From Chondrilla cf. caribensis (Eukaryota; Porifera; Demospongiae; Chondrillida; Chondrillidae): a stretch of DNA of 64,000 nt. A program made the translations under genes and the position numbers. The notes under the pieces are model-generated. The model saw nothing but the letters and a program-made list of their open reading frames with translations. It was not told the DNA's origin and searched no databases. Shown piece by piece: positions 915 to 62,512 of the stretch (position 1 is the first letter of the stretch; every line of letters begins with the position of its first letter). The stretch spans positions 914,345 to 978,344 of the forward strand of contig OZ026559.1 in assembly GCA_964020155.1 (NCBI GenBank), read 5' to 3'.

Positions 915-3900
915 CATTCAATGTTCCTGAGCACATTACTCAAACCTGCTTTGTTCTGAGAGATGTCCACACCCTCCCCATCACCCACCAGGGTGGTTTC
1001 TTCCCTCTCCATCCTTTTGGACCATGTGGAGGTGAACAACAAGTGGAGTGTTGTGCTACGTTGGAGGCTCCACCTGGTGTTGTGGGCAGTGGTGTCACTG
1101 TGAGTGTTCACTATGCCATCATCCTGGACGGACCCTTCAAGTTCCCTGAGGAGTGGGAGAGAACAAGCGTGGTTCTCTACATTGACTGTCCTGAGAAGAG
1201 ATTGCTATTCAAATCTTTCAAAGTCAATCTACGTCACTGGGCTGTATTCTCTGAGACTTCTCGTATGTGTTTCATGAAGTCTGACCACCTGTTACAAGAT
1301 GGGCAAACTAAATTCACTTTCAGGTATCATGCGAATGCTATCCCCTCCCAGCCCAACGTGGCAAGTGTGTACCTGAAGGATCACTTCTGTCTTGTGTGTG
1401 ACGCAGCTCAATCAAATGTCATGGTGACATCAAGTTACTGTGGGATTTTGCTTAGCGATCCTTTAAAAGAAAGAGTTGAAAAATTTTGGTTGTGTATCAC
1501 TTATGCTGTACCATCATGGTTGAAGGTGAGTACCGAAGTCTTAAATATAATTGTGCATTGTTCAATATCTGACATGTGCCAAAGGTTGTTACTAAGACAG
1601 GTTGGTACTCAGTTGTGTATATAGTGATGATATTCTATAACATCCAATGAACAACAACAGTTTAATACGTAGAGACTACCAGGTGCAACCCCTTGTGTGC
1701 CAGCGGTGCATATTTGCACCCATTGTTATGATAACCTATAGACCCCACTCATAGTAGATAGGGGAGCCTCCCCAGTGTTTATCGATTAAGACCTTTTCAT
1801 GAGATTATTAGGGTTGATGTCAAATCATATATATCTCTTCAATTTAGGCTGTTGCTAAGTATTATCGCAAGGGAGAAGACTCTGAAGGGGGTTCCTACCT
1901 TCCTGAGAACAAGGTGATAGAAATAAGCTATGGTAACAAGGTGAAGGTTGACATGGAGAAGGAAAGTGGTTCAGGATGGGATCTAAGAATAGCAGATAAA
2001 GAGGTGTGTGTACTTATTGTAGCGTAGCTAAATACATGAGTATTGCATGTGTGTAAGTATAGTGAAATTCAACCAGACAAGTCTAAGACTTATTGTAGAC
2101 AGCTGCAGCATACCACTGAGGCTCGTATACAATTGTGGGAGCAAGAACATCATGCAGATTCTTATTTATATGTATAAGCCTTATTAATCTGGTTTAAGAG
2201 TTGGGCATTATAGTAACTGTACACATGTTCTGTACACAAATTGCTTAAATATTTATCCCTGAATGTGGAATATGTTCATTATTATTTGGAAAACAGCGGG
2301 AATTCTGTAAACAATCAATCATGTATAAGGTTTTATTTAGATTGTGTTATACATAATTTTACATACATACATACATAATGCTGCATGGACTCCACATGTC
2401 TGCATTTTATCTGATTCTATATAATATTATTGTTATGGTGACTTCTAACATAGATAAAGTTAAGGGATGTGGATGCCTTATTGTCACGATATACCAGCTG
2501 TACCGACAAGAAAGACGCTATGAGATGCGGCTTTTACCCCCCATCTGTGCAGTTCATAGTGACCTACGACAATGTCCCTTCTCCTGAGACACACAAGCCG
2601 GAAATCAATTGTGCTCTTTTATCATCTGAAAGTGGTGACACAAAATCACTCTTCTTCACAGTACAGGAAAAAAAGGGTTAGTGACTTGTAGTTGCATTCT
2701 GTGGAAGTAACAGATGTCTCCACCAGCTGCAGTGGTATGTATACAATGCCACTGAGAGCTCACCTCATCCACTTGCCATTGTATGCTTGTTTTTTTGGGG
2801 CTGCCTGTGGCAGCCCCTATATTGTTTTCATTGCAACTTCCGGTATGTTACGCTCATCTGATAGATATTATATATATATGTGTTCCTACATGTAACCACA
2901 ACAATAAATTTATATTAGGGTTTATATTGCACGAAATAAAGATGGCCGATTTCGAACGCTGATAATTGAAAGAAATTGAGAAACAAAGAAATTGGGCTAA
3001 AATTCGTGTGCTGAAGCTCTGCCGAATGTAATAACTTCAGCAAAGGTTCTTCTGAACCTAAGAAAGACACCCAAGTAATTCGAGTGCAGGGGCAGCAGCC
3101 CCACGAGTTTTTAAACTCGAATTACTTGTTAATGTTTACATAGTATCAATTCACCTAACAGAATGCTCGTGCATGCAGCACATCACTTGTTCATGTCAAA
3201 TTTCATGCTATATTCCTATCTATTCTGGTCCATGAAGTGTCTAGCCAATGCTTGTTGTTTTTGTTTTCCTCTATCAGTCTTAGACCACTTAACATGTTAT
3301 TCACGAATTGTAGCATTGAGTTTGAGTGATATCTACTGATTGGTGATTTATAGCAGTTGTCACAATCTCTTGTATACGTGAACCTGCAATTCAATTTTGT
3401 ATTATTAATACTACTTGGTATTTTGAATATCCAGTTATCTTATTTGGTTAAAATGAACTTCATAAATTGCAGGTTAGAACTACTTTTGGACAGTCAGTAC
3501 ATTTTCAACCCAAATAACCATTAAAATGGTTAAAGTGACTACACATTATTGTAGTGTAAATGAGTTGGACATAAAACATATAGTACGACAGTTTCGAATG
3601 AGACTATATATAGTTTAATATGTGCACATAATAATATAATAGCTCTTTTTGTAGCAAAAAGTTTGATTTATATTTTAATATATAATTTACATATTTTACT
3701 TGGTATGTAATGAAAAGTTCCATTGTCTCATCAGCTGTTATTACGGATGTCAATATGTCGTCAAACAGACCTGTACAAAGTGCCTTGACAGAGCCGACCC
3801 ATTACAATCGTTCTCAGGGTATGGTATTGTGTGGTGTAGTATACGTTACATAACATGTACATAGATATGTACTATGCATAAGGTACTTAAGCATGTACAA

Positions 3901-62500: not shown

Positions 62501-62512
62501 CTTCAAACATGA
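56579..62512 (+). CDS. G6: three-pass membrane protein with three Death domains, lacking ZU5-UPA
   Basis: Inferred exons: 56579-56594, 56663-56779, 56898-57053, 57223-57363, 57431-57568, 58081-58215, 59106-59249, 59465-59776, 60656-60790, 61178-61489, 61867-62151, 62469-62512. Total 1935 nt, an open 644 aa. The N-terminus MDSAPSDTTGW and three membrane segments match G4 and G5, and the basic RRNNYSG stretch follows the third. Instead of ZU5-UPA there are acidic Ser/Pro/Leu-rich linkers, one of them duplicated (58081-58215 and 60656-60790). They flank a Death domain unlike DD1 to DD3 (about residues 283-386: NWQKYAISLGLSMEQVEYYA, then LKHWRDGK). DD1 (432-535), DD3 (536-630) and a short tail EHQDVSVPHYKLQT follow; DD2 is missing. 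Exon borders near CA repeats and the LINE fragment are less certain. Confidence 0.75.
58027..58372 (+). repeat. Segmental duplication, copy 1, containing a G6 linker exon
   Basis: Near-identical to 60601-60947, beginning CATGCACCTGTACATTACCA. It contains exon 58081-58215 and its flanking intron sequence, and a CA repeat follows. Confidence 0.85.
58378..58530. repeat. (CA)n microsatellite
   Basis: CCCA repeats leading into about 70 CA units in a G6 intron. Confidence 0.95.
58545..58905 (-). repeat. GC-richer unclassified insert, possible LINE fragment
   Basis: Base composition differs sharply from its surroundings (GTGGCCCCCAATTCAGGGGG, GGGACACATGCCCCAACACCCC). It lies between CA repeats in the same G6 region as the LINE 3' fragment, so it may be part of such an element, but no domain is recognisable. 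Confidence 0.3.
59819..60005. repeat. (CA)n microsatellite
   Basis: About 90 CA units directly abutting the 3' end of the minus-strand LINE fragment. Confidence 0.95.
60006..60475 (-). mobile_element. 3' end of a non-LTR retrotransposon (LINE)
   Basis: On the minus strand, 60462-60187 reads RWNDLVQRDLRNCHLEGDW and then RNEWRSKIW. This resembles the conserved C-terminal block after the reverse transcriptase in many LINEs, where a W-x-D-x-x-x-R-D-L motif precedes a region with W-R. It is followed by C2H2-like finger pieces (CSIDGCGFTALNHAGLVNH, then beyond a TAG CQYCHQTFNRQGLHNHERF). The element then ends in TG repeats. It is a 5'-truncated fragment in a G6 intron. Confidence 0.65.
60514..60602. 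repeat. (CA)n microsatellite
   Basis: About 44 CA units directly before the second copy of the segmental duplication. Confidence 0.95.
60601..60947 (+). repeat. Segmental duplication, copy 2, containing a second G6 linker exon
   Basis: Near-identical to 58027-58372. The exon 60656-60790 keeps the same length (135 nt), splice sites and phase as its sister, so it can be included in frame. Confidence 0.85.

What the first reader, a model, noticed from the sequence alone, without database searches (positions are those of the whole stretch)
915..62512. Tandem array of membrane-anchored ZU5-UPA-multi-Death-domain genes
Six paralogues combine three membrane segments, a very short N-terminal face, ZU5-UPA and two to four Death domains (G6 without ZU5-UPA, G3 without recognisable membrane exons). 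Known ZU5-UPA-DD proteins are single-pass receptors (UNC5) or soluble (PIDD1, ankyrins), with one Death domain each. A three-pass ZU5-UPA protein with tandem Death domains in a local cluster is an arrangement I do not know from described families. It is the best candidate here for an undescribed innate-immune or cell-death signalling system.
Basis: partly seen in the sequence, partly recalled or inferred. Interest (0 to 1): 0.85.

Follow-up and report, generated by a model that had tools for sequence, protein, structure and literature searches.

The report
Membrane-anchored Death-domain receptor gene array
A run of near-copies of a gene appears to encode membrane proteins whose inner part joins a ZU5-UPA module, possibly self-cutting, to two or three Death domains, which looks like an undescribed kind of immune or cell-death switch.

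Summary
The array is real and larger than the window: 65 ZU5-like places genome-wide, 16 of them within about 300 kb around the window. Exon chains for G2, G4, G5 and G6 splice GT-AG in one frame (885, 981, 951, 681 aa; only G6 from Met to stop), with three hydrophobic segments. A 52-nt microexon, present in 11 of 11 introns aligned, joins the second and third Death exons in frame. Pfam misses ZU5 in all five window copies, but the predicted fold matches UNC5b, ankyrin, NLRP1 and CARD8. The Death exon that Pfam hardly sees is also modelled as a Death domain. Corrections: two or three Death domains per chain, not four; tandem Death domains after ZU5 are known (MACC1); a sponge ZU5 expansion was mentioned in 2012. 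New: these ZU5 domains carry (H)F-C where PIDD and CARD8 carry HF-S or SF-S and self-cleave. Best reading: a three-pass, possibly auto-cleaving ZU5-UPA receptor holding a multi-Death tail. Expression, cleavage, function and species are untested.

The parts
947..1525 (+). G1 ZU5 exon (scored part)
   Evidence: HFC motif
3955..4697 (+). G1 Death exons DDa (3955-4260) and DDb (4455-4697); the last Death exon at 5770 keeps only its first 17 residues
14763..15348 (+). G2 membrane exons TMa 14763-14870, TMb 14995-15138, TMc 15208-15348
   Evidence: GT-AG, one frame; hydropathy
15508..15850 (+). G2 linker exons 15508-15567 and 15656-15850
15955..16559 (+). G2 ZU5 exon (ZU5 plus probable start of UPA); carries D-F-C at the position of the HF-S autocleavage motif
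16628..18011 (+). G2 exons X1 16628-16783 and X2 17792-18011 (probable rest of UPA)
   Evidence: UPA assignment is inference
18946..19047 (+). G2 linker exon
19129..19434 (+). G2 Death domain DDa
19673..19920 (+). G2 Death domain DDb
20461..20509 (+). G2 conserved microexon (49 nt here, 52 nt in the other copies) that restores phase between DDb and DDc
20721..21046 (+). G2 Death domain DDc with stop codon
21230..21618 (+). G2 second copy of the DDc exon, after the stop of the first (alternative end at most)
30544..33314 (+). G3: ZU5 30544-31116, X1 31200, X2 31484, DDa 32337-32651, diverged DDb 33075-33314; no match to the membrane exons and no DDc found
35654..37105 (+). G4 membrane exons 35654-35767, 35884-36054, 36962-37105
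37188..39273 (+). G4 linker exons 37188-37259 and 38854-39273, the latter with EPRQPEPHQ repeats
39418..40551 (+). G4 ZU5 39418-40031, X1 40110-40265, X2 40332-40551
41514..43520 (+). G4 linker 41514-41621, DDa 41706-42008, DDb 42235-42482, microexon 42923-42974, DDc 43195-43520
44792..45422 (+). G5 membrane exons 44792-44911, 45012-45152, 45291-45422
45508..52547 (+). G5 linkers 45508-45648 and 47043-47435 (end of the latter picked among several in-phase GT sites), ZU5 47506-48113, X1 48174-48326, X2 48447-48666, DDa 50003-50308, DDb 50714-50961, microexon 51940-51991, DDc 52204-52547
56016..56127 (+). G6 first exon: Met plus signal-peptide-like hydrophobic stretch
56663..57363 (+). G6 membrane exons 56663-56779, 56898-57053, 57223-57363
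57431..59249 (+). G6 linker exons 57431-57568, 58081-58215, 59097-59249
59465..62201 (+). G6 Death-like exon DDg6 59465-59776, linker 60656-60790, DDa 61178-61489, DDc 61867-62201 with stop; no ZU5

Best explanation
A tandem array of type-A genes (three-pass membrane anchor, linker, ZU5-UPA, up to three Death domains) and ZU5-less type-B genes (anchor plus Death domains). Shown on the sequence: exon order, open frame, predicted ZU5 and Death folds, hydrophobic segments. Inferred: the N-terminus is outside (signal exon in G6), a short two-cysteine loop lies between TM2 and TM3, and the ZU5-UPA-Death part is in the cytosol. Proposed mechanism: ZU5 cuts itself at F-C (cysteine in place of the serine of PIDD, NLRP1 and CARD8). 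The membrane-bound ZU5 half then holds the UPA-Death tail by non-covalent contact. A stimulus acting on the variable membrane part or on the N-terminal half frees the tail, whose two or three Death domains nucleate a Death-domain assembly that drives caspase or NF-kB-type signalling. The ZU5-less members would be partners, constitutive nuclei or decoys.
Against: No transcript, no cleavage assay, no known ligand. Cys in place of Ser is not documented for a ZU5 in what I read. F at -1 is absent in most of the distant members (N, C or S), G2 has D at -2, and 2 of 28 lack S/C. The catalytic His is matched by spacing only. X1 and X2 were not folded, so the full UPA is inference. VIA Z for DDa lies below the 13 that the tool advises for helical bundles, and Foldseek's best E for it is 0.13. 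The inner loop after the first membrane segment of G5 has no K or R. The signal exon is intact in 2 of the 6 copies located (970360, 1035182), split over two frames in 3 and degenerate in G5, so some genes may be dead or start elsewhere. The type-B genes have no ZU5, so cleavage cannot be the whole story.
Confidence: 0.43

Rival explanations
1. Same anatomy, but ZU5 is an uncut scaffold as recalled for UNC5 and ankyrin: intact receptors cluster in the membrane and their Death domains signal directly, in the manner of UNC5CL or TNFR1.
For: The best fold matches are UNC5b and ankyrin; UNC5b has Leu in place of the scissile Phe (PMC3210808), and that UNC5 and ankyrin ZU5 do not cleave is recalled. 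The ZU5-less members keep the Death domains, so signalling need not involve ZU5.
Against: Nucleophile and His columns are conserved in the distant members too, which a mere scaffold would not obviously need.
Confidence: 0.37
2. Not immune: an adhesion, allorecognition or developmental receptor family that happens to use Death domains.
For: ZU5-UPA-Death receptors such as UNC5 guide cells (recalled); no pathogen link was seen here.
Against: Tandem array, recent segmental duplication (about 98% identity upstream of G3), fast membrane exons with conserved signalling exons, and the sponge ZU5 expansion already guessed to serve defence.
Confidence: 0.15
3. Membrane exons and ZU5/Death exons belong to different mRNAs, or the array is mostly pseudogenes.
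For: No RNA evidence; signal exon broken in several copies; G1 and G3 incomplete; three acceptors, one in G4 and two in G6, have lost the usual AG and rely on the next one.
Against: Short introns (69-159 nt) from the first G2 membrane exon to ZU5 and phase 1-1 at each of those junctions, G6 open from Met to stop over 11 exons, low dN/dS of ZU5 and Death exons.
Confidence: 0.05

Closest known systems
PIDD1 (LRR-ZU5-ZU5-UPA-Death), NLRP1 and CARD8 (ZU5-UPA-CARD)
   Same: ZU5-UPA followed by a death-fold domain; HF-S or SF-S autocleavage position aligned to (H)F-C here
   Different: Sensors with LRR, NACHT or a disordered N-terminus and one death-fold domain (partly recalled); here a three-pass membrane anchor, two or three Death domains, and Cys for Ser
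UNC5 netrin receptors and UNC5CL
   Same: Membrane protein with cytosolic ZU5-UPA-Death; UNC5b is a top fold match; UNC5CL is recalled as having a very short N-terminal face
   Different: One membrane pass and one Death domain (recalled); Leu in place of the scissile Phe in UNC5b (PMC3210808, passages)
MACC1 / SH3BP4
   Same: ZU5 plus two C-terminal Death domains in MACC1 (PMC11585957, passages)
   Different: SH3 domain, and no membrane anchor named in the passages; no SH3 match here
Sponge lineage-specific ZU5 expansion (PMC3482391, 2012)
   Same: Expanded ZU5 proteins in sponges, guessed to act in defence (passages)
   Different: One sentence without architecture in the text I saw; its Additional File was not read, so identity with this family is unknown
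Sponge NLRs and Death-TRADD-N expansions
   Same: Lineage-specific immune expansions with Death domains (PMC12909245 and PMC8195603, passages)
   Different: NACHT or TRADD-N based; neither domain was listed for the spliced chains scanned

Membership tests
ZU5-UPA superfamily | ZU5 beta-sandwich fold | tested here: met
   AF2 model matched to ankyrin, UNC5b, NLRP1, CARD8 and ZO-1 ZU5; Pfam ZU5 hits 5 of 28 relatives and is precomputed for 2 of 40 homologues
ZU5-UPA superfamily | complete UPA domain after ZU5 | tested here: inconclusive
   Model residues 4-195 align to UNC5b 541-725, past the ZU5 end as I recall it; X1 and X2 exons fit in length but were not folded
PIDD1/NLRP1/CARD8 autoproteolytic class | F-[S/T/C] scissile pair at the end of ZU5 with a nearby His | tested here: met
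   F-C in 12 of 13 array units and Y-C in one; His 34 residues upstream in 27 of 28 relatives; profile alignment onto HFS. Sequence features only
PIDD1/NLRP1/CARD8 autoproteolytic class | actual self-cleavage | not testable with these tools
   needs an expressed protein
PIDD1 | LRR plus two ZU5 plus one Death domain | tested here: not met
   no LRR match in spliced G2 and G4 and one ZU5 exon each; a separate PIDD-like gene exists on C11
NLRP1/CARD8 | C-terminal CARD | tested here: not met
   C-terminal domain matches Death, not CARD, in Pfam
UNC5 | single membrane pass | tested here: not met
   three hydrophobic exons in G2, G4, G5 and G6
UNC5 | Ig and thrombospondin ectodomain | tested here: inconclusive
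   no such match in spliced chains, but the first exon of type-A genes was not located
MACC1/SH3BP4 | SH3 domain between ZU5 and Death | tested here: not met
   no SH3 match in G2 at E <= 10 or G4 at E <= 1
Death domain superfamily | six-helix Death fold | tested here: met
Sponge ZU5 expansion of 2012 | sequence relation to the listed proteins | not tested

The most novel reading that the evidence does not exclude
A family of cysteine-type, self-cleaving ZU5 receptors fixed in the membrane by a three-pass anchor: a membrane-tethered counterpart of the NLRP1/CARD8/PIDD cleave-and-hold switch, releasing a multi-Death tail, amplified as a rapidly evolving tandem array, perhaps in a sponge (species not tested).
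Probability: 0.3. Interest if true: 0.82.

Novelty: new variant of a known kind. Interest (0 to 1): 0.6.

Why it matters
If right, the self-cleaving ZU5 switch of inflammasome sensors also exists in a membrane-bound form wired to several Death domains; if the genome is a sponge's, far from vertebrates. That makes two points directly testable: whether a ZU5 can use Cys for autoproteolysis, and how early animals coupled membrane sensing to Death-domain assemblies. Even if the ZU5 is inert, a three-pass ZU5-UPA-multi-Death receptor array with fast membrane exons and conserved signalling exons is a useful new immune-type gene family.

Tried and rejected
Pfam on single exons for ZU5 gave nothing. 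The profile of six array copies gave no PDB sequence match; the 28-member profile gave two, a fatty acid-binding protein (0.0047) and a cycle inhibiting factor (0.94), judged spurious. A protein search with the whole G2 chain, scored over residues 215-545, found nothing at E <= 0.01, probably because that collection holds mostly single-ORF predictions and the length filter excluded exons; with the exon profile it gave 40 relatives among 788 candidates, none with a name, so relatives in named species could not be shown. I first thought the DDb exon must end the gene, because its phase does not fit DDc; the microexon refuted this. A G2 first exon near 12960 with a signal-like stretch was considered, but its relatives are degenerate. 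The exons behind several units (Y1, Y2) were considered as a C-terminal part; Y1 matches HAT1_C. Membrane anchoring of the distant ZU5 paralogues could not be tested, and the genome-wide search with DDa did not complete. Alignment A4 of DDa with DDg6 was misaligned and dropped for A3. Chain ends in the VIA list were considered as a marker of the cut site, but are mixed (see full report).

Full report
Where it is. The window is C14:914345-978344 of an unnamed 137 Mb genome in 37 contigs. A search with the G4 ZU5 exon found 65 places (a lower bound; a few are partial and one holds a stop), 20 on C14, of which 16 lie between 820 and 1130 kb. The rest are spread over 13 other contigs, notably 16 on C8 and 7 on C3. 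Mapping exon classes over a 250-kb stretch, 35 kb of which was unreadable, shows the same exon order again and again on the + strand. The array is several times larger than the window.

Gene models. Splice sites were read from the alignment of paralogues and chosen to keep phase, so an open frame is partly built in; the shared borders across copies are the better evidence. G2 joins 13 exons, all GT-AG, in one open frame of 885 aa. G4 joins 13 exons into 981 aa, G5 12 exons into 951 aa, and G6 11 exons into 681 aa from Met to stop. In G5 one linker donor was picked among several in-phase GT sites, and one linker exon of the other genes was not placed. DDb ends in phase 0 and DDc starts in phase 1. 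A microexon of 52 nt (49 in G2) with AG and GT borders, present in all 11 introns aligned, repairs exactly this, which argues strongly that the Death exons are joined. The first exon is known only for G6, with a signal-like peptide. Of 6 copies of that exon located, two (970360 and 1035182) are intact, three are split over two frames and the one at G5 is degenerate. In G4 the last acceptor, and in G6 two linker acceptors, have lost the usual AG; the next AG is in frame. These exceptions limit how many copies can be called functional.

Corrections to the finding. Within the window, membrane exons exist for G2, G4, G5 and G6. G1 begins with its ZU5 exon and upstream sequence was not readable to me; its last Death exon is truncated. 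G3 shows none that match, and its upstream region is 97-99% identical to that of another such copy near 888-894 kb. Per reading frame there are three Death domains in G2, G4, G5 and G6 and two in G3. The fourth in G2 lies behind an in-frame stop.

Topology. G2 has three hydrophobic segments. The stretch after the first has six K/R in 15 residues, that between the second and third has none but carries two cysteines, and four K/R follow the third. G4 and G6 show the same order more weakly; G5 has no K/R after its first segment but five after its third. With the G6 signal exon this suggests N-out, C-in and a very small outside face. The G6 type of membrane sequence was found only in this array (8 matches, all on C14); the G2 type was not searched genome-wide.

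Selection. Mean pairwise identity and median dN/dS (simple Nei-Gojobori, saturated pairs and broken copies left out): ZU5 78% and 0.34 (13 copies, 78 of 78 pairs), DDa 82% and 0.32 (16, 120 of 120), DDb 73% and 0.27 (15, 93 of 105), DDc 81% and 0.43 (15, 105 of 105); X1 0.47 and X2 0.34 (13 each). Membrane exons: TMa 41% and 0.76 (10, 36 of 45), TMb 45% and 0.64 (8, 28 of 28), TMc 45% and 0.89 (10, 40 of 45). The linker after the membrane part: 37% and 1.29 (6, 14 of 15). The signalling side is held and the membrane side drifts or diversifies. Alignment errors in the short, divergent membrane exons could inflate their ratios, and antisense frames over some exons also had low ratios (0.21 opposite DDa), so a low ratio is not by itself proof of coding.

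A possible autocleavage site. CARD8 and NLRP1 cut themselves between F and S at the end of ZU5, PIDD at HFS, and Ser, Thr or Cys can act in this chemistry (PMC3210808, passages). Rat NLRP1 cuts F968|S969 and needs H942 (PMC8081665, passages). Of the 13 array units read, 12 have F-C and one Y-C there, and 12 have H before it. Across 28 family members the nucleophile position is C in 16, S in 10 and N in 2; H stands at -2 in 21; a His 34 residues upstream is kept in 27. In the 14 most distant ones the nucleophile position is S in 10, C in 3 and N in 1. The pair lies just before the strand at model residues 149-155. The same genome carries a PIDD-like gene on C11 with LRRs, two ZU5 and two HFS motifs; a profile of it and three other Pfam-ZU5 genes aligns to the array family with E 7e-5 at a probability of only 63%, placing F on F and C on S. 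This argues for, and does not prove, a working site. Most distant members lack the F that mutation showed to be important in CARD8.

Mechanism proposed. Autocleaved ZU5 keeps the UPA-Death tail bound to the membrane half; loss of the N-terminal half, or a shift in the membrane part, frees the tail, and two or three Death domains give a strong nucleus. The NLRP1 precedent is N-terminal degradation releasing UPA-CARD. Steps from cleavage onward are inference. The likeliest rival is an uncut UNC5CL-like receptor.

Novelty. ZU5-UPA-Death, tandem Death domains after ZU5 (MACC1) and a sponge ZU5 expansion are known. I saw no account of a three-pass ZU5-UPA-multi-Death protein in 7 full-text searches, of which I saw listings and, for six papers, passages (a seventh gave only a reference title, which I recall as the UNC5CL paper). 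They cover open-licence papers only. Hence: new variant of a known kind.

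Noticed in passing
window 11205-11429, 23483-23707, 54245-55133, 63812-64000 (+): Repeated exons 1.6-5.4 kb behind four of the six window units (G1, G2, G5, G6). One (54221-54466) matches HAT1_C, the histone acetyltransferase B C-terminus, at 6.5e-9; the neighbouring exons had no Pfam match over its cut-off but resemble the HAT1 tail as I recall it. pN/pS 0.11-0.58. Whether these are expressed genes or fragments is unclear.
   Followed up: partly
window 6425-8686 (-): hAT/ZMYM1-like transposase in two adjoining open frames (DUF4371, hAT dimerisation).
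   Followed up: partly
L010:802-3054 (C11:5.10 Mb, -): PIDD1-like gene: LRRs, two ZU5 domains, two HFS motifs, with a Death match just downstream.
   Followed up: partly
G000 C8, C3, C5, C10, C22 and others: 49 of the 65 ZU5-like places lie outside the array; of 14 distant ones aligned, 10 have S at the cleavage position and 11 H before it. 14 of 65 places have a Pfam Death match within 6 kb downstream on the same strand (lower bound).
   Followed up: partly
window 21230-21618 and 52204-52547, DDc tails: The tail after DDc carries PPPY in 8 of the 17 distinct DDc sequences listed, a possible WW-domain binding motif (meaning recalled).
   Followed up: no
C14:986.0-989.6 kb: A unit with membrane exons followed by DDa, DDb and DDc and no ZU5 between them, a third arrangement.
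   Followed up: no
L035:560-1165 (C14 about 990.6 kb): A ZU5 exon whose first half is nearly identical to the array and second half strongly diverged, suggestive of gene conversion.
   Followed up: no
window 20051-20176 (-): Weak DDc-like piece (45% identity) on the minus strand inside the G2 DDb-DDc intron.
   Followed up: no
window 5138-5490, 58384-58529, 59814-60006 and others: Very long CA/TG repeats inside introns of the receptor genes.
   Followed up: no
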